Source: Comamonadaceae bacterium (GTDB lineage: Bacteria > Pseudomonadota > Gammaproteobacteria > Burkholderiales > Burkholderiaceae). From it: 5,826 bases of DNA. Shown here piece after piece: positions 1-5,826 of this stretch. The notes beneath the pieces are model-generated. The model was given only the letters and a program-made list of their open reading frames with translations. It did not search any database and was not told where the DNA came from. Location of the stretch: the NCBI GenBank assembly GCA_947505915.1, contig CANNNH010000105.1, forward strand, positions 1-5,826. Direction: 5' to 3'. Numbering within the stretch: position 1 is the stretch's first letter; every line of letters begins with the position of its first letter. Made by a program: the position numbers and the translations under genes.

Positions 1-781
1 CATGGCGCTGGGCGGCCAAGAACCAGGCCGCGCGCATGCTTCCTTGGGCATAGGTGGCGCGGCTGGAGGATTTGTGGGTGATCTCGATGCGCTCGCCGGT
101 GCCGGCAAACAACACCGTGTGGTCACCGACGATGTCGCCACCTCGGATGGTGGCGAAACCAATGCTAGAGGGGTCACGCTCACCGGTATGCCCCTCGCGG
201 GCATACACCGCGCAGTCTTTCAGCTCACGCCCCAAAGCCTGGGCCACCACCTCGCCCATTTTGAGGGCCGTGCCTGAAGGGGCATCGACTTTGTGGCGGT
301 GGTGGGCCTCGATGATTTCAATGTCGTAGCCGGTGGCCATGGCCTGGGCCGCCATGGCCAGCAACTTGAGGGTCACGTTCACGCCCACGCTCATGTTGGG
401 GGCCATGACCACCGCGATGCGCTGGGCAGCTTGGGCGATCAGCTCTTTTTGCTCGTCGCTCAAGCCCGTGGTGCCAATGACCATGTGCACGCCCATCTCG
501 GCGCAGGCCGTCGCGTGGACCAAGGTGCCCTCGGGGCGGGTGAAGTCAATCAGCACCTGCGCCTGGGCCAGGCCTTGGCGCACATCGGCGGTGATGGTCA
601 CCCCGCTGCTGTGGCCCAAAAAAGCCGTGGCATCGGAGCCAATGGCCGGGCTGCTGGTGAGATCCAAGGCACCCACCAATTGCGCATGGGGGTCGTTTTG
701 AACGGCTTCGATCAGCATGTGGCCCATGCGGCCGCTGGCGCCAGCGACGGCAATGCGCAAAGGGGTTTGGGGTGTGGTCAC
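1..781 (-). CDS. dapB: 4-hydroxy-tetrahydrodipicolinate reductase DapB, 3' end cut off
   Basis: DapB is the cytoplasmic enzyme that reduces 4-hydroxy-tetrahydrodipicolinate with NAD(P)H in the diaminopimelate pathway to lysine and peptidoglycan. Reading from a GTG at 781 gives 260 residues before the window edge. The E. coli protein has 273, so only about 10 to 15 residues are missing. Visible motifs are the nucleotide-binding glycine pattern GASGRMG at residues 14-20, DFT at 79-81, GTTG at 103-106, and the family signature [15 protein letters not shown] with His160, His161 and Lys164. These match catalytic His159 and Lys163 of E. coli. The GTG start is chosen because the Rossmann strand begins right after it; I see no good Shine-Dalgarno. 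It lies 19 bases downstream of bamE on the same strand, so the two are probably co-transcribed. The assignment is secure; the exact start is less so. Confidence 0.96.
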
Positions 782-800
782 GGGGGCAAGGCGGCGCAGC

Positions 801-1373
801 TCAACGCTGGGCGGGCTCCAGGGGCGGGTAGCTCATGCTCACAGGCGGTTCGTTGCTGGTGGCCGGTGCCACAGGCCCTTTGGGTTTGAATTTGCTCAAC
901 TCGGCCTCGCTGGCTTCGAGCTTGGGCACTTTGATGTCGATGCGGCGGTTGTCGATGCGGGCGGCAAATTCGGCCTCGGTGGGCATTTCGTCGGCCTCAA
1001 AGCGCACCATGGCGTCGCCTTCAAAAAACACGCTGATTTTGCGCTGCTGTGGCTCAGCCCCTTGGCGGCGCAGGGTGAAGGCGTAATCCCAGCGGTTGGC
1101 ATGGAACACACTGGCCACCAAAGGGGTGCCCAAGACGTCGCGCACTTGTCGGCGCGACATGCCTTTTTGCAACATCTGGACTTGCTCTTTGGAAACAAAG
1201 TTGCCTTGCACCACATCAAAGCGATAGGGGGAGAGCGCGGTGATGGTGCGGCTGGCGGTACGACTGGCGGTTTCGCAACCCGACAACAAAACACACAAGC
1301 CAGCACACACCCACAGGGCCCAGGTCGTGGTGCGCTGGGTGGCTTTGGTGGGGGTGAATGCAAAGGCTATCAT
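801..1373 (-). CDS. bamE: outer membrane protein assembly factor BamE (SmpA/OmlA lipoprotein)
   Basis: BamE is a small outer-membrane lipoprotein of the BAM complex, which folds beta-barrel proteins into the outer membrane. The 190-residue product has a lipoprotein signal peptide with a hydrophobic stretch at about residues 18-30 and lipobox LSGC, giving Cys33 as the lipidated residue. The SmpA/OmlA domain follows: YRFDVVQGN (50-58), GMSRRQV with the LGTP turn (71-84), and NRWDYAF (93-99), all hallmarks of the family. A proline- and alanine-rich tail of about 40 residues extends past the domain. The protein is longer than E. coli BamE (113 residues), which seems common in this bacterial group. 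A short repeat, TASRTASRT, follows the lipidated cysteine. The ATG at 1373 is the only plausible in-frame start before the lipobox. The gene is divergent from fur, an arrangement known from other proteobacteria where the gene is called omlA. Confidence 0.93.
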
Positions 1374-1407
1374 GCGCTGATTCTAGCGTCTGGGCCTGTT
1401 CGCACAA
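1368..1407. promoter_or_regulatory. divergent overlapping candidate promoters for bamE and fur
   Basis: On the minus strand, TTGTGC (1402-1407) and TAGAAT (1380-1385) are separated by 16 bases and point at bamE. Transcription would begin within a few bases of its ATG, so the bamE mRNA could be nearly leaderless. On the plus strand, TATCAT (1368-1373), with a TTGGTG 17 bases further upstream at 1345-1350 inside bamE, points at fur and predicts a leader of roughly 55 bases. The two -10 elements are only about 7 bases apart, so the polymerases would compete. Both are sigma-70-like by eye with imperfect -35 boxes. Overlapping divergent promoters are known for fur and omlA in Pseudomonas. No convincing Fur box is visible. 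Confidence 0.4.
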
Positions 1408-1433
1408 GCTTCAGGCCGCACTGCAAAACCGCC

Positions 1434-1868
1434 ATGGCCCACATTGACGACCTCAAAAACACCGGCCTCAAAGCCACCTCACCCAGATTGAAAATCTTGG
1501 CGTATTTCCATGCGGGCAAGCAACGCCACATGTCAGCCGAAGATGTTTACCGCTTGGTGGTGCAAGAACGCGCAGACATTGGCCTGGCCACCATTTACCG
1601 GGTGTTGACCCAGTTTGAGCAAGCCGGCTTGCTTCGGCGCAGCCAATTTGAGTCGGGCAAGGCAGTGTTTGAACTCAACGAAGGCGACCACCACGATCAC
1701 CTGGTGTGCCTGGACTGTGGCCGGGTCGAGGAGTTTTTTGACGCTCAAATAGAGTCGTTGCAAAACGATGTGGCTGCGGCCAAGGGCTTTCGCATCGCCG
1801 ATCACGCCTTGAGCTTGTATGCGCACTGCACCCGCAGTGCCTGCCCCCATCGCCATGCCATGGGGTGA
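1434..1868 (+). CDS. fur: ferric uptake regulator Fur
   Basis: Fur is an iron-sensing transcription factor that, loaded with Fe2+, represses iron uptake genes as a dimer. The 144-residue product aligns with E. coli Fur (148 residues) over its full length. The winged-helix DNA-binding domain covers about residues 1-82, with the recognition segment [13 protein letters not shown] (49-61). The metal and dimerization domain holds HHDH (86-89), the CLDC zinc knuckle (Cys92, Cys95) and a second cysteine pair (Cys132, Cys137). The His-rich tail is shorter than in E. coli. ATG at 1434 is chosen because the preceding reading frame overlaps bamE antisense and the protein then starts like other Fur proteins; no strong Shine-Dalgarno is visible. 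The stop codon lies 3 bases from that of convergent hprK. The family includes Zur and PerR paralogues, but sequence and location favour Fur. Confidence 0.94.
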
Positions 1869-1871
1869 GCC

Positions 1872-2816
1872 TCAGGCCTGCATGGCCTTGCGTTGACGAT
1901 CGGCGAACTCTTCGTAAGTGTTGATGCCGCGCAACTGCAAAATGGTGTTGCGCACCGCGGCTTCGACCAGCACGGCGATGTTGCGCCCAGCCACCACCTG
2001 GATGACCACTTTGCGCACCGGCACATCCAAAATATCCTGGGTCAATGGCTCATGGGGCAGCCGGTCGTAATCGCGCTCCAAGGTTTCGCGCCGCACCAAG
2101 TGAACGATGAGTTTGAGGCGCATTTTGCGGCGCACAGCAGTCTCGCCAAAAATGGCACGGATGTCGAGCAAACCAATGCCACGCACCTCGAGCAGGTTTT
2201 GCAACAAATCGGGGCAGCGCCCCTCCAAGGTGGTTTGGTTGATGCGGTAAATGTCCACCGCATCGTCAGCCACCAAGCCGTTGCCGCGCGAAATCAGCTC
2301 CAAACCCAGCTCGCTTTTGCCCAGGCCCGATTCACCGGTGATCATCACCCCCAGGCCCAAAATGTCCATGAAAACCCCGTGCATCGAAGCCCGGTCGGCA
2401 AAGTGCTTGGACAAATAAGCACGCAAGATATCGATCACAAAGGCCGAGGACTCGCGGGTGGCAAACATCGGGATTTGGGCCCGCTCGCACATCGACTCCA
2501 AGGCCTCAGGTGCGACTTGCCCATCGGCCAGAATCAGCACCGGCGGCTCCAGGGTGACGATGCGCGCCACCCGGCGGGCACAGTCCTCGGGGCTGGAGTT
2601 GCTCAAATAGCTGACTTCGCGGTGCCCCAGCAACTGGATGCGATAGGGGTGGATGTAGTTCAGATAGCCGACCAGGTCGGCACCCGAGCTGGCCGCGCGC
2701 ACCGCGACCTCGTCAAAACGCCGCTCGGACGCGCCGGTGCCTGCCACCCAATGCCAGCCCAGCTTTTCGCGGAAAGCCTCGAACAACACATCGGCGCTGA
2801 CAACGGTGGGTCTCAC
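1872..2816 (-). CDS. hprK: HPr kinase/phosphorylase HprK
   Basis: HprK is a bifunctional enzyme that phosphorylates and dephosphorylates a serine on the phosphocarrier HPr. In proteobacteria it usually sits with PTS-Ntr genes and regulates rather than drives sugar uptake. The 314-residue product has the N-terminal HprK domain (about 1-130) and the C-terminal kinase domain. The latter contains conserved His146 in MHGVFMDI, the Walker A loop GESGLGKS (161-168), the acidic pair Asp184-Asp185, the family signature [15 protein letters not shown] (210-224), and the [14 protein letters not shown] block near residue 280. The start is GTG at 2816, supported by a family-typical N-terminus ([14 protein letters not shown]), though without an obvious Shine-Dalgarno. 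It lies 54 bases downstream of ptsN and is probably co-transcribed with it. All key residues I can check are present, so it should be active. Confidence 0.95.
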
Positions 2817-2870
2817 AAGGTGCGCCCACGTTGGTTGCTGCGCTGCGGGTTCTTCATGGTTGGGTGCGGT

Positions 2871-3338
2871 TCAGGCAGCCTGGGTTGATTTCCAAGTGGA
2901 CAAAATTTGGTGCAACTCGTGCGCATCTTGGCTGGACTTGAGGCGGTCGCGCACCCGGCTGTCGCTGAGCAACTCGGCGATTTCGGACAGGATTTCAAGG
3001 TGCTTTTGGGTCGATGCCTCGGGCACCAGTAAAAAAATCAGCAAGGAGACGGGTTGCTCATCGGGTGCATCAAACCCAATCGGCGCGGCCAACTGAAACA
3101 CCGCTGCCATGGGGTTCTTCAAACCCTTGATGCGGCCGTGGGGAATGGCCACCCCATAGCCCAAACCGGTAGAACCCAAGCGCTCGCGGGCAAACAAGCT
3201 GTCGGCCACCAAGGCGCGGTTCATGCCATGGCGGTCTTCAAACAACAAGCCCGCCTCTTCGAAAGCACGTTTTTTACTGGTCACGTCCACGCACACCAAG
3301 ACTTGCTCGGGCGGAAGGATGGCTGAGAGTCGGTTCAT
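2871..3338 (-). CDS. ptsN: PTS-Ntr EIIA component PtsN (EIIA-Ntr)
   Basis: PtsN is the terminal phosphoacceptor of the nitrogen-related phosphotransferase chain (PtsP, NPr/HPr, PtsN). It does not carry sugar; its phosphorylation state regulates potassium transport, nitrogen and stress responses in studied species. The product has 155 residues (E. coli 163) and is a single PTS EIIA type-2 domain. The phosphorylated histidine is His67 in GYGVAIPHGR (60-69), preceded by the conserved FARERLGSTG run (49-58) and followed by the LLIFLLVPE core strand. I chose ATG at 3338 because related proteins begin MNRL. A GTG 33 bases upstream would add 11 residues read through an inverted repeat and is less likely. 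No clear Shine-Dalgarno precedes the ATG. It sits between hpf and hprK, as in many betaproteobacteria. An unusual set of inverted repeats lies just upstream. Confidence 0.95.
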   Translation of the reverse strand: MNRLSAILPPEQVLVCVDVTSKKRAFEEAGLLFEDRHGMNRALVADSLFARERLGSTGLGYGVAIPHGRIKGLKNPMAAVFQLAAPIGFDAPDEQPVSLLIFLLVPEASTQKHLEILSEIAELLSDSRVRDRLKSSQDAHELHQILSTWKSTQAA

Positions 3339-3340
3339 GA

Positions 3341-3413
3341 AGGTGTCACAAAAGAGTGACAGATTATGCACCTGTGATTAGCACAAACCCAAATACTTTG
3401 TGACACCTGTGTC
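3341..3413 (-). promoter_or_regulatory. ptsN upstream region with nested inverted repeats and candidate promoter
   Basis: The sequence AGGTGTCACAAA (3341-3352) recurs as its exact reverse complement TTTGTGACACCT at 3397-3408, a perfect 12-base inverted repeat 56 bases apart. Within it lie TGTCAC-N6-GTGACA (3344-3361), TGTG-N5-CACA (3373-3385) and GACAC-N2-GTGTC (3402-3413). A weak sigma-70-like promoter on the minus strand, TTGGGT (3387-3392) and CATAAT (3363-3368) with an 18-base spacer, lies between the two long arms and would start ptsN mRNA about 20 bases before its ATG. Dyads flanking and overlapping a promoter suggest an operator. The regulator is unknown. The half-sites resemble the TGTGA-type sites of the CRP/FNR family, but the spacing does not match that consensus. 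Confidence 0.4.
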
Positions 3414-3479
3414 TGCCCAGAACCACACTCAGCACGCCATTTGTCCAGTACAAAATTCTTGAACAATGCGAGTCCCAAG

Positions 3480-3546
3480 CCAACCCCTCGGAGGAGGGTT
3501 GGGTGGGGTCGTGGGTGTGTCAGCGCCCAGCCAGCCAGGGCTGGCT
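3480..3546 (-). other. two hairpins and a G-quadruplex motif in the hpf-ptsN gap
   Basis: Downstream of the hpf stop codon the transcript would form two stable hairpins: one with perfect 8-base arms at 3529-3536 and 3539-3546, and one with CCAACC arms plus a CTC/GAG extension at 3480-3502. Neither is followed on the minus strand by a proper run of T residues, so they are poor intrinsic terminators. They may still cause pausing, partial termination or mRNA end protection. On the plus strand, which is the template here, four G runs at 3496-3515 with loops of 2, 1 and 4 bases fit the G-quadruplex pattern. The rest of the 217-base gap shows no gene. Confidence 0.35.
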
Positions 3547-3555
3547 CAGCACGGT

Positions 3556-3891
3556 TCAGGACACCATCACGCGTTTGACGGTGGTGTGCTGATGGTCTTG
3601 CAACTTGTCTTTGTGGCGCACCACTTGGCGATCGAGTTTGTCCACCAAGTCGTCGACGGCTGCATACAAGTCGGCGTGGGCGCTCTGCGCAAACATATCG
3701 CTGCCCTTGACATGGATGTTGCACTCGGCCCTTTGGCGGCCTTGCTTCTCCTTTTGCTTCTCCACGGTCAACAAGACTTTGACATCCACCACCTGATCAA
3801 AGTGTCGGGTGATGCGGTCTAGCTTGTGGGTCACATAACTGCGCAGGGCCGGGGTCACTTCCAAATGGTGACCGCTGATCGTCAAGTTCAT
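3556..3891 (-). CDS. hpf: ribosome hibernation-promoting factor Hpf (short type)
   Basis: Hpf binds the 30S subunit near the decoding site and promotes formation of inactive 100S ribosome dimers in stationary phase. The product has 111 residues, so it is a short-type HPF (E. coli 95), without the extra C-terminal dimerization domain of long HPF. It shows the family's beta-alpha-beta-beta-beta-alpha pattern: ISGHHLEVTPALRSYV at 5-20, basic residues in the second strand region, AECNIHVKG at 55-63, and the conserved helix DLYAAVDDLVDKLDRQV at 74-90 followed by RHKDKLQDH. The ATG at 3891 is supported by a strong Shine-Dalgarno AGGAGG at 3896-3901, only 4 bases upstream. In many proteobacteria hpf follows rpoN; here its upstream neighbour is the divergent corA instead. 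It is the first gene of the hpf-ptsN-hprK cluster. Confidence 0.94.
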   Translation of the reverse strand: MNLTISGHHLEVTPALRSYVTHKLDRITRHFDQVVDVKVLLTVEKQKEKQGRQRAECNIHVKGSDMFAQSAHADLYAAVDDLVDKLDRQVVRHKDKLQDHQHTTVKRVMVS

Positions 3892-4282: not shown

Positions 4283-5269
4283 ATGCTCAACATCTTTACC
4301 CTTGCCAACGGGCGCTTGTTCCAAGAAGAAATCGAGTCCTTGGAAGAGTTGTCGCGGTTTCAACCCATTTGGGTTGACCTCGAGTCCCCCACCCTGGAAG
4401 AAAAACGCTGGATCAACCAGCACTTTGGCGTGCTCATCCCCGAAGACGCGATGGACGAAGACATCGAAGAATCGGCGCGTTTTTATGAAGAAGACAACGG
4501 CGAACTCCACATCCGAAGCGACTTTTTGATCGCCCACGAGGACGAACCCCGCACCGTGCGGGTGGCTTTCATCATCAACCAACAAAACGAGTCGCTCAAG
4601 AGTCGTGGCGTTTTGTTCTCCATCCACGATGAAGACGTGCCGGTGTTTCGCCTGCTGCGCATGCGCGCGCGCCGGGCACCGGGCTTGATCGAAGACGACA
4701 AAGACGTGTTGCTCAAACTGTTTGACGCCGATGCCGAGTACTCTGCTGACACGCTGGAGGGCATTTACGACGAACTGGAAAAGGCCAGCAAATTGGTGCT
4801 CTCAGAGGTCGTCACCGACGCTTTGGCCGGCGAGGTGCTGGGCGCCATTGCTCGCCAGGAAGACTTGAACGGGCGCATCCGGCGCAATGTGATGGACACC
4901 CGCCGCGCCGTCAGCTTCATGATGCGCGCCAAGATGCTCAATGCCGAGCAATTTGAAGAAGCGCGCCAAATTCTGCGCGACATCGAGTCGCTGGACAGCC
5001 ACACCGCTTTTTTGTTTGACAAGATCAACTTTTTGATGGACGCCACCGTGGGCTTCATCAATATCAATCAAAACAAGATCATCAAAATTTTCTCGGTGGC
5101 CAGCGTGGCCTTGTTGCCACCCACATTGATCGCCAGCATTTACGGCATGAACTTTCAATTCATGCCTGAACTCAATTTCGATTGGGGCTACCCCTATGCC
5201 CTGGTGTTGATGCTGGCCAGCGCCATCGTGCCCATGTGGTATTTTCGAAAGCGCGGTTGGTTGCAATGA
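4283..5269 (+). CDS. corA: CorA-family divalent cation (magnesium/cobalt) transporter
   Basis: CorA proteins are homopentameric inner-membrane channels for Mg2+ and, in many species, Co2+. The product has 328 residues (E. coli 316). Residues 1 to about 260 form the cytoplasmic domain, rich in acidic residues (for example PEDAMDEDIEE), ending in the long stalk helix that leads into the pore. The first membrane segment, about 266-286, is followed directly by the diagnostic YGMN filter motif with GMN at 288-290 and FQFMPEL after it. The second segment is at about 303-321 and ends in a basic cytoplasmic tail (FRKRGWLQ). The ATG at 4283 gives a family-typical N-terminus (MLNIFTLANGRL), but no Shine-Dalgarno is visible, which is odd beside a long structured leader. 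The gene is divergent from hpf and followed by a manganese-riboswitch-controlled gene. Substrate is inferred from family, not shown. Confidence 0.93.
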   Translation: MLNIFTLANGRLFQEEIESLEELSRFQPIWVDLESPTLEEKRWINQHFGVLIPEDAMDEDIEESARFYEEDNGELHIRSDFLIAHEDEPRTVRVAFIINQQNESLKSRGVLFSIHDEDVPVFRLLRMRARRAPGLIEDDKDVLLKLFDADAEYSADTLEGIYDELEKASKLVLSEVVTDALAGEVLGAIARQEDLNGRIRRNVMDTRRAVSFMMRAKMLNAEQFEEARQILRDIESLDSHTAFLFDKINFLMDATVGFININQNKIIKIFSVASVALLPPTLIASIYGMNFQFMPELNFDWGYPYALVLMLASAIVPMWYFRKRGWLQ

Positions 5270-5313
5270 CTCACGATAAGCCTGCACCGACGAACCAGGT
5301 CGATAAATCCCAC

Positions 5314-5344
5314 AAAAAAACCGGGGATTTTCAATACCGGGTTT
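5314..5344. terminator. terminator-like hairpin downstream of corA
   Basis: AAACCGG (5318-5324) pairs with CCGG-G-TTT (5337-5344) with one bulged base and a loop of about 12 bases. On the plus strand it lies 45 bases after the corA stop and is followed by a weak tract, TTTAAT. On the minus strand it is followed by seven T residues (5320 down to 5314), so it is a better terminator in that direction, although no minus-strand gene is seen there. It may act in both directions, ending corA transcription and blocking antisense entry into corA. Confidence 0.5.
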
Positions 5345-5355
5345 AATCCGCCCAC

Positions 5356-5490
5356 TCGATGGGGAGTAGCTCTATTCTGCTGCCAGCCAGATGGCTTGGT
5401 CAGCGGGATCAACAAATCGTCAATACGAAGCTTTGCTTCCGGTTTGTTGGGCACATAACAGCATCATTACAAGCTGAGCAAGACCTTCGA
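5356..5490 (+). promoter_or_regulatory. yybP-ykoY manganese riboswitch aptamer
   Basis: This RNA senses Mn2+ and controls manganese export or homeostasis genes. The two arms of the metal-binding L1 loop are present almost letter for letter: GGGGAGTAGC (5361-5370) and GAGCAAGACC (5476-5485). The L3 loop signature CGTCAATACG (5418-5427) is also present. Closing helix P1 is formed by 5356-5362 and 5484-5490 with one T-T mismatch. P2 starts with GCTC (5369-5372) against GAGC (5476-5479). One internal hairpin has GCTG/CAGC and AGCC/GGCT pairing (about 5379-5404). The arm carrying L3 pairs CAACAAATCG (5410-5419) with CGGTTTGTTG (5440-5449) and is capped by GAAGC-TTT-GCTTC (5427-5439). The next gene encodes a TerC-family protein, a known partner of this riboswitch class. 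A TTTAAT at 5342-5347 could be the -10 element, but no -35 box is visible. Confidence 0.93.
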
Positions 5491-5496
5491 TCCGTC

Positions 5497-5591
5497 ACCC
5501 GTGGGGTGCGGCGAAGCGTCGATCGGGTTCCCACTCGTCTCGTTTTTCTGCGCCACAACGGGTAGTGATTGACTGTTCTTGTGGAGCGTCT
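5497..5591 (+). promoter_or_regulatory. candidate riboswitch expression platform hiding the Shine-Dalgarno
   Basis: The Shine-Dalgarno GGAG (5583-5586) lies 5 bases before the GTG start at 5592. It can be buried in a helix between 5549-5558 and 5579-5588, ten positions with one G-A mismatch and one G-T wobble, across a 20-base loop. A competing helix pairs ACCCGT (5497-5502) with ACGGGT (5558-5563) and GTGCG (5506-5510) with 5551-5556, which would free the Shine-Dalgarno. In addition, TTCGATC (5486-5492), which includes the 3' strand of P1, can pair with GATCGGG (5521-5527). Five T residues at 5543-5547 are not directly preceded by a good hairpin, so translational control looks likelier than termination. 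The pairings are seen; the mechanism is inferred. Confidence 0.5.
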
Positions 5592-5826
5592 GTGGAACTT
5601 TTTTCTGCCCCCTGGTGGTCGGCATTGCTGGCGATCATCTTGATCGACCTGGTTTTGGCCGGCGACAACGCCATCTTGATCGCGTTGGCCGCGCGCAACC
5701 TCCCGCCTGCACTCCAACGCAAAGCCATCATCTGGGGCACGGTGGGTGCCATTGTTGTTCGCAGCGTCATGACCTTGTGCGTGGTTTGGCTGCTGCAAAT
5801 ACCGGGCTTGATGTTGGTCGGCGGCC
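5592..5826 (+). CDS. TerC-family integral membrane protein, 3' end cut off
   Basis: TerC-family proteins are multi-pass inner-membrane proteins. Members such as Alx and YkoY are tied to manganese homeostasis, probably export, and others to tellurite resistance. Only the first 78 residues are in the window, roughly a third of a typical member. They contain a membrane segment at about 8-29 that includes the family motif DLVLAGDNAI (19-28, with Asp19, Asp25 and Asn26), a short basic loop AARNLPPALQRK (33-44), and a second segment at about 45-69. The sequence resembles the YjbE-type subgroup. The start is GTG at 5592, supported by GGAG five bases upstream; a GTG at 5581 is in another frame. The upstream manganese riboswitch implies expression responsive to Mn2+ and a role in removing or handling excess manganese. 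Substrate is inferred from the riboswitch and family. Confidence 0.9.
   Translation, partial: MELFSAPWWSALLAIILIDLVLAGDNAILIALAARNLPPALQRKAIIWGTVGAIVVRSVMTLCVVWLLQIPGLMLVGG

What the first reader, a model, noticed from the sequence alone, without database searches (positions are those of the whole stretch)
5356..5490. yybP-ykoY Mn2+ riboswitch controls a TerC-family gene next to corA
Both L1 arms, the L3 signature and a consistent P1/P2/P3 fold are visible, followed 101 bases later by a TerC-family start codon. Riboswitch and product together predict a manganese response unit. Its position directly after a CorA-type cation channel gene puts two divalent-metal transport functions side by side. 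The class is known; this instance in this genomic setting may not have been examined.
Basis: partly seen in the sequence, partly recalled or inferred. Interest (0 to 1): 0.72.

Follow-up and report, generated by a model that had tools for sequence, protein, structure and literature searches.

The report
Manganese riboswitch before a terC gene
This looks like a genuine RNA switch of the known manganese-sensing class in front of a TerC-type metal-handling gene; it falls below the standard RNA database threshold, and the neighbouring corA gene appears to be incidental.

Summary
The riboswitch is real. That test is too strict: none of 38 betaproteobacterial and none of nine Firmicute terC loci searched reached 45 bits, though one other terC leader did. 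A model built from 71 relatives without the window scores it 112.7 bits, E 4e-33. Seventeen of 24 pairs show changes on both sides, and the L3 core CGUCA, not used for selection, is invariant.

The 3' strand of switch helix P1.1 can instead join a competing hairpin (5482-5520), so by analogy with studied members Mn2+ should stabilise P1.1 and turn terC on. In six of seven relatives with 53-55-base leaders that strand covers the Shine-Dalgarno. The window's longer leader shows no such effect and only a weak terminator-like site; its read-out (Rho or translation) stays open.

corA lies within about 3 kb of terC in 3 of 80 loci, never directly upstream on the same strand. Verdict: new member of a known kind.

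The parts
4283..5269 (+). corA, CorA-type Mg2+/Co2+ transporter gene; neighbour, not part of the switch
   Evidence: Pfam PF01544, NCBIfam TIGR00383 above cut-off; no same-strand upstream corA at 80 terC loci
5342..5347 (+). TTTAAT, candidate -10 element just upstream of P1.1 (inferred)
   Evidence: TAAT in the 14 bases at this place in 43 of 71 relatives, background 6 of 213; no sigma-70-type pair found by the consensus scan, so the -35 is weak or absent
5356..5362 (+). P1.1 5' strand (UCGAUGG)
   Evidence: pairs with 5484-5490 with one U.U opposition (5360/5486)
5361..5370 (+). L1 5' arm GGGGAGUAGC
   Evidence: GGGGAGUA is the pattern by which relatives were picked, so its invariance is by construction
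5369..5372 (+). P1.2 5' strand, pairs with 5476-5479
   Evidence: changes on both sides at 3 of 4 pairs, incl. 9 sequences with A-U in place of G-C
5374..5409 (+). P2 hairpin; the stretch between the L1 arms is longer than in the Firmicute relatives (119 against 76-88 bases from arm to arm)
   Evidence: minimum-energy fold; variable in relatives; not tested for covariation
5410..5449 (+). P3.1 (5410-5417/5442-5449), L3 (CGUCA 5418-5422, CGG 5440-5442), P3.2 (5427-5431/5435-5439)
   Evidence: P3.1 6 of 8 pairs and P3.2 4 of 5 pairs with changes on both sides; CGUCA and CGG invariant in 71, neither used for selection
5422..5422 (+). adenosine equivalent to the Mn2+-contacting A41 of L. lactis / A48 of X. 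oryzae
   Evidence: same UCAAU context as given for L. lactis in PMC6754395 passages; equivalence by sequence only
5480..5490 (+). L1 3' arm AAGACC and P1.1 3' strand CCUUCGA
5482..5520 (+). competing (anti-P1.1) hairpin GACCUUCG.../...CGAAGCGUC that takes the P1.1 3' strand and part of L1
   Evidence: -21.6 kcal/mol, z -3.40, 0 of 200 shuffles as good when 5482-5521 is folded; z -1.37 for 5482-5530 and -0.3 for 5483-5527, where part of the strand takes another downstream partner; the strand is paired downstream in 44 of 50 long leaders, window included
5553..5584 (+). hairpin CCACAA...UUGUGG covering the first two bases of the ribosome-binding site
   Evidence: fold of 5520-5600 and of the last 50 bases before the start, z -1.94; weak in relatives (mean z -0.59 over 50)
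5583..5586 (+). GGAG, likely Shine-Dalgarno sequence, 5 bases before GTG
   Evidence: read from sequence
5592..5826 (+). terC (YjbE-type) start, first 78 codons; gene runs off the window
   Evidence: Pfam PF03741; best NCBIfam TIGR03717 R_switched_YjbE 83.9 bits, below its full-length cut-off of 134.8, the gene being cut

Best explanation
A yybP-ykoY (Mn2+-sensing) riboswitch acting as an ON switch for a TerC-family gene. Shown by comparison: the aptamer (L1, L3, P1.1, P1.2, P3.1, P3.2) and, in most long-leader relatives, a competing hairpin that uses the P1.1 3' strand. Inferred from the studied members: Mn2+ bound at the equivalent of A5422 docks the two arms, stabilises P1.1 and prevents the 5482-5520 hairpin; without Mn2+ that hairpin wins and terC output falls. 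Inferred and open: how the hairpin lowers output in this long leader. My guess is premature, Rho-assisted termination together with poor translation (about 50%), translation alone about 35%, an intrinsic terminator about 15%. TerC would then serve Mn2+ export or the loading of exported enzymes with Mn2+. The confidence given is for class and ON logic, not for the read-out.
For: Left-out model score 112.7 bits, E 4.2e-33, against a best of 8.1 bits in 33 corA loci. Alignment of 71 relatives: 90.8% of cells paired (shuffles 77.9%), 229 cells with changes on both sides (shuffles 60.6), 17 pairs with such changes (shuffles 13.6; 3 of 500 as high), slid controls 25.8-45.6% paired. CGUCA in 61 of 61 leaders chosen by the L1 arms only. 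The same model scores the eight Firmicute loci given to it 58.1-69.8 bits. Competing helix in 50 long leaders: 94.8% of cells paired (shuffles 90.4), 9 cells with changes on both sides (shuffles 1.1). In seven leaders of 53-55 bases, six have the Shine-Dalgarno as partner of the P1.1 3' strand, its opening cost 5.3-8.3 kcal/mol higher in the OFF model. Mechanism in studied members: PMC6754395 and PMC11087558, passages. Mn2+ induction of a yybP-ykoY-led gene in a betaproteobacterium: PMC8546581, passages.
Against: RF00080 below gathering. P1.1 carries a U.U opposition. For the window the Shine-Dalgarno opening cost is not higher in the OFF model (3.4 against 4.3 kcal/mol; a crude model that only blocks the P1.1 3' strand), and pairing of the P1.1 3' strand with the downstream leader is not unusual (21 of 100 shuffles as good). 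The competing hairpin loses significance when the folded stretch is longer or shifted, and the number of pairs with double changes is not above shuffles (98 of 500). C over G in the window's leader is slight (27.6% against 25.9%), so no clear Rho-site signal. No Mn2+ binding or expression data.
Confidence: 0.9

Rival explanations
1. Same class, but purely translational: the 5553-5584 hairpin hides the ribosome-binding site without Mn2+ and is opened when P1.1 formation frees the 5512-5520 strand.
For: Short-leader relatives look directly translational; the hairpin overlaps the site and has z -1.94 in the window; E. coli mntP is described as translational (PMC11647493 passages).
Against: Computed opening cost in the window is not higher in the OFF model; structure in the last 50 bases before the start is weak over 50 long leaders (mean z -0.59).
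Confidence: 0.35
2. Same class, but an intrinsic terminator (stem 5524-5537, then TCTCGTTTTT) gives the OFF state.
For: Terminator-like site in the scan; two sites found in 401 bases against 0.6 in shuffles, the other being P3.2. In B. pertussis the BP3410 transcript is reported to stop within the riboswitch without Mn (PMC8546581 passages).
Against: Stem of 5 pairs with 3 G-C only; 22 bases lie between the competing hairpin and the U-run, and in the other long leaders that hairpin is by eye not followed by a U-run within the 45 bases shown.
Confidence: 0.15
3. A chance resemblance: no aptamer, only GGGGAGTAGC and related words in a structured intergenic region.
For: RF00080 fails its gathering score.
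Against: Left-out score 112.7 bits, covariation, and presence upstream of terC in 61 of 80 and 52 of 55 loci.
Confidence: 0.01
4. corA and terC form one metal-response transcription unit under joint control.
For: Same strand, 86 bases between the corA stop and P1.1 in the window; corA lies within about 3 kb of terC in 3 of 80 loci against 0, 0, 0, 0, 1 and 2 of 80 for six other window genes.
Against: No other locus of 80 has corA upstream of terC on the same strand; in L. radicicola the genes are about 200 kb apart; -10-like TAAT directly before P1.1 in 43 of 71 relatives.
Confidence: 0.08

Closest known systems
yybP-ykoY (Manganese, RF00080) riboswitch
   Same: L1 and L3 cores, P1.1, P1.2, P3.1, P3.2, position before a TerC-family gene, P1.1 3' strand shared with a competing hairpin
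   Different: Longer stretch between the L1 arms, U.U opposition in P1.1, competing hairpin without an adjacent U-run, score below the Rfam gathering cut-off
Lactococcus lactis and Xanthomonas oryzae Mn2+ riboswitches (PMC6754395, PMC11087558; passages)
   Same: L3 core with the sensing adenosine; P1.1 as switch helix
   Different: In the L. lactis member the competing hairpin is an intrinsic terminator; only a weak, separate terminator-like site here
Escherichia coli mntP leader (PMC11647493; passages)
   Same: Mn2+ ON switch in a Gram-negative, with translation and Rho involved there
   Different: Other gene (mntP); expression platforms were not compared here
Bordetella pertussis BP3410 leader (PMC8546581; passages)
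   Same: Betaproteobacterial yybP-ykoY leader, Mn2+-induced
   Different: Controls a gene annotated as calcium:cation antiporter, not terC
RF00080-positive leaders upstream of GDT1 genes in the genus of L. radicicola (L181-L187)
   Same: Same class, related bacteria
   Different: 77.9-105.2 bits with RF00080 but only 22.9-36.8 bits with the terC-leader model

Membership tests
yybP-ykoY Mn2+ riboswitch | L1 arms GGGGAGUAGC and (A/G)AGACC (motif recalled and as in the RF00080 consensus) | tested here: met
   5361-5370 and 5480-5485
yybP-ykoY Mn2+ riboswitch | L3 core with invariable Mn2+-contacting adenosine | tested here: met
   CGUCA 5418-5422, UCAAU context as in L. lactis
yybP-ykoY Mn2+ riboswitch | P1.1, P1.2, P3.1, P3.2 helices supported by covariation | tested here: met
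   17 of 24 pairs with changes on both sides in 71 relatives; window fits with one U.U opposition
yybP-ykoY Mn2+ riboswitch | RF00080 gathering score (45 bits) | tested here: not met
   22.6 bits. A curators' cut-off, not a property of the RNA: 0 of 9 Firmicute terC loci reach it, 7 of them scoring 28.9-43.1 bits
yybP-ykoY Mn2+ riboswitch | four-way junction with P2 and P4 | tested here: inconclusive
   P2 in fold; P4 short; neither tested for covariation
yybP-ykoY Mn2+ riboswitch | precedes a Mn2+-related membrane protein gene | tested here: met
   TerC domain, best subfamily R_switched_YjbE
yybP-ykoY Mn2+ riboswitch | Mn2+-dependent folding and gene expression | not testable with these tools
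   needs in-line probing or a reporter

The most novel reading that the evidence does not exclude
The terC leaders of Comamonadaceae and related Burkholderiales are a lineage-wide yybP-ykoY subclass that Rfam's cut-off mostly overlooks. Within one genus the same aptamer is wired to at least two outputs: capture of the Shine-Dalgarno by the P1.1 3' strand (short leaders) and a separate competing hairpin without U-run far from the start (long leaders, as in the window). This would be a natural series for watching an expression platform change its mechanism while the sensor stays fixed.
Probability: 0.55. Interest if true: 0.45.

Novelty: new member of a known kind. Interest (0 to 1): 0.28.

Why it matters
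It adds a well-supported instance of a known metal-sensing RNA and shows that 'no RF00080 hit above gathering' is weak evidence of absence for this class: 0 of 38 betaproteobacterial terC loci and 0 of 9 Firmicute terC loci pass, while one terC leader of another genome does (49.3 bits). The short- and long-leader relatives allow a direct test of how one aptamer is coupled to different read-outs. The corA adjacency looks incidental.

Tried and rejected
Rfam at gathering gave nothing in the window; I lowered the threshold and built a model of my own. Direct Shine-Dalgarno sequestration by the P1.1 3' strand was tested for the window and not supported. Results there are uneven: 54 leaders of 80 bases or more, mean OFF-ON difference 0.6 kcal/mol (16 above +1, 2 below -1); 18 under 80 bases, 2.7 (10 above +1, 1 below -1). 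Among these the eight of 73-79 bases whose P1.1 3' strand can pair with GAAGGUC-like sites show only 0.4-2.0. Pairing of the P1.1 3' strand with the downstream leader beats 95 of 100 shuffles in half of 72 leaders, not in the window (21 of 100 as good). C over G as a Rho hint was not clear (C>G in 42 of 50 leaders, but also in 42 of 50 aptamer interiors, where L124 was run with a wrongly picked L1 3' arm). Structure just before the start is weak. A paper search with corA and terC was swamped by unrelated words; one with lineage names listed 10 of 1,175 papers, none of them holding yybP-ykoY. Dambach 2015 and Price 2015 are not held; I know them only from citing papers and recall.

Rows dropped: 114 leaders with both L1 arms, window included (62, 52), less five re-fetched copies, seven Firmicutes and two longer than 175 bases (L035, L058) leave 100; near-duplicates reduce these to 72, of which 71 without the window built the model. 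Leaders were picked by L1-arm patterns, so variants outside the patterns are missed: the model later found two more leaders before terC among the 19 loci left out (L054, L079) and none at all in eleven of them.

Full report
Observation. Between them lie the L1 arms (GGGGAGUAGC 5361-5370; AAGACC 5480-5485), P1.2 (5369-5372/5476-5479), a P2 hairpin (5374-5409), P3.1 (5410-5417/5442-5449), the L3 core (CGUCA 5418-5422; CGG 5440-5442) and P3.2 (5427-5431/5435-5439). The TerC start codon GTG at 5592 follows 101 bases after 5490, with GGAG at 5583-5586. The visible 78 residues match Pfam TerC and best fit NCBIfam TIGR03717, whose name records riboswitch control. CorA upstream passes the CorA cut-off.

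Rfam. At the gathering score the window has no match to any family. With relaxed thresholds RF00080 matches 5348-5570 at 22.6 bits, E 2.1e-4, cut-off 45. So 0 of 38 betaproteobacterial relatives pass (L011 and L121 are the same place, so 37 distinct); of nine Firmicute terC loci none passes; seven score 28.9-43.1, two give no match. Against this, in the genus of L. radicicola RF00080 passes its cut-off in 8 of 90 genomes: seven of these loci precede a GDT1 gene (7 of 7) and one (G079, 49.3 bits) is a terC leader. H. seropedicae, a betaproteobacterium, has a reported RF00080 hit of 47.7 bits before mntP (PMC7011215 passages). So the cut-off is strict, not blind.

Relatives. A search with the TerC fragment returned 80 loci. 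Both L1 arms lie upstream in 61 of 80 (54 not Firmicute, 7 Firmicute), all 61 with CGUCA between them. The other 19 fail my patterns; four Polynucleobacter loci are among them. From the genus of L. radicicola and four further handles I fetched 60 stretches: 55 hold terC, 52 of these have the L1 arm, and the other three hold 51, 132 and 196 upstream bases. Five of the 52 are copies of loci already among the 80. In L124, L126 and L171 the script first picked a wrong L1 3' arm; I corrected this later.

Covariation and left-out test. Seventy-one distinct aptamers without the window were aligned. They were picked by L1-arm patterns, so the invariance of those arms is by construction; CGUCA and CGG were not criteria and are invariant. 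Of 24 pairs 17 have changes on both sides (shuffle mean 13.6, 3 of 500 as high); 90.8% of cells pair (shuffles 77.9, none as high); slid controls give 25.8-45.6%. P1.2 shows G-C replaced by A-U in nine sequences; eight others have A opposite C. A model from this alignment scores the window 112.7 bits, E 4.2e-33. In 33 corA loci, 128 kb, the best score is 8.1 bits. The model scores the eight Firmicute loci given to it 58.1-69.8 bits and the seven GDT1 leaders 22.9-36.8, which ties this group to the known class. In the genus it matches 52 of 90 genomes at E up to 0.01; two of these (G035, G073) only by GDT1 leaders, leaving 50; 38 have none, and I did not establish whether those lack terC or are incomplete.

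Mechanism. In the studied members Mn2+ held by an invariable L3 adenosine stabilises P1.1 and keeps its 3' strand out of a terminator (PMC6754395 and PMC11087558, passages only). The window has the same UCAAU context, placing that adenosine at 5422. Its P1.1 3' strand can enter a competing hairpin at 5482-5520, -21.6 kcal/mol, z -3.40; the z-score falls to -1.37 and -0.3 with longer or shifted stretches. In 50 leaders of 92 bases or more (window included) the fold of 45 bases pairs at least four of five bases of that strand downstream in 44, mean z -2.63. Six outer pairs hold in 94.8% of cells with nine double changes, though the number of pairs with double changes is not above shuffles (98 of 500). 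In seven short leaders (53-55 bases) six have the Shine-Dalgarno itself as the partner, its opening cost raised by 5.3-8.3 kcal/mol; the seventh shows 0.1. The window's long leader shows no such effect (OFF 3.4, ON 4.3 kcal/mol). Only a weak terminator-like site is present after the hairpin. The read-out is therefore open; Rho-assisted termination is my leading guess, by analogy with E. coli mntP (PMC11647493 passages) and the B. pertussis BP3410 leader, whose transcript is reported to end early without Mn (PMC8546581 passages).

corA. As far as the loci are held, none of 80 has corA upstream of terC on the same strand; L024 and L027 have it convergent and L046 downstream. Six other genes of the window give 0, 0, 0, 0, 1 and 2 of 80, so a mild tendency to neighbourhood is not excluded, but L024 and L027 account for most of it. 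In L. radicicola the two genes lie about 200 kb apart. TAAT stands in the 14 bases before P1.1 in 43 of 71 relatives against 6 of 213 stretches further upstream, which points to a promoter of terC's own. I regard the adjacency as lineage-specific.

Novelty. The class, its link with TerC genes and its ON logic are published (listings; TerC and metalation from abstract starts of PMC10550928 and PMC12096827). No paper listed (40 of 91 shown), 19, 59, 60 and 61 concerns this leader in Comamonadaceae by title and abstract start; these cover only open-licence PubMed Central. It is a new member of a known kind, with a possibly informative variety of expression platforms.

Noticed in passing
L061:2696-2806 (-), L056:2712-2827 (-), L079:2455-2588 (-): Aptamers of the same type (48.8-61.6 bits with model R1) lie on the opposite strand between terC and a divergent LysR-type regulator gene, upstream of the regulator; RF00080 does not report them at E up to 0.1. 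A Mn2+ riboswitch in front of a transcription regulator would be unusual, as far as I recall.
   Followed up: partly
L079:2815-2935 (+) and 4599-4701 (+): One locus with three such aptamers: before a YjbE-type terC, before a longer TerC-domain gene (4777-5745), and before the LysR gene.
   Followed up: partly
L181-L187: In 7 of 90 genomes of the relatives' genus a canonical RF00080 riboswitch precedes a GDT1 gene, a second leader type beside the terC leaders.
   Followed up: partly
L125, L129, L133, L139, L140, L144: Leaders of 53-55 bases where the CUCGAAGGA stretch is at once the Shine-Dalgarno and the complement of the P1.1 3' strand: a very compact translational design.
   Followed up: partly
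L006, L016, L018, L020, L024, L026, L027, L031: L1 variant GGGGAGUAAC with GAGCCAGACC, which breaks one P1.2 pair (A opposite C) in eight sequences; possible altered geometry or metal preference.
   Followed up: no
window 5314-5346: AAAAAAACCGG...CCGGGTTTAA: imperfect inverted repeat between corA and the aptamer, perhaps the corA terminator, read by eye; the scan did not list it.
   Followed up: no
window 1-3891: dapB, bamE, fur, hprK, ptsN and hpf genes; hpf and ptsN also lie beside corA in L. radicicola, by eye.
   Followed up: no
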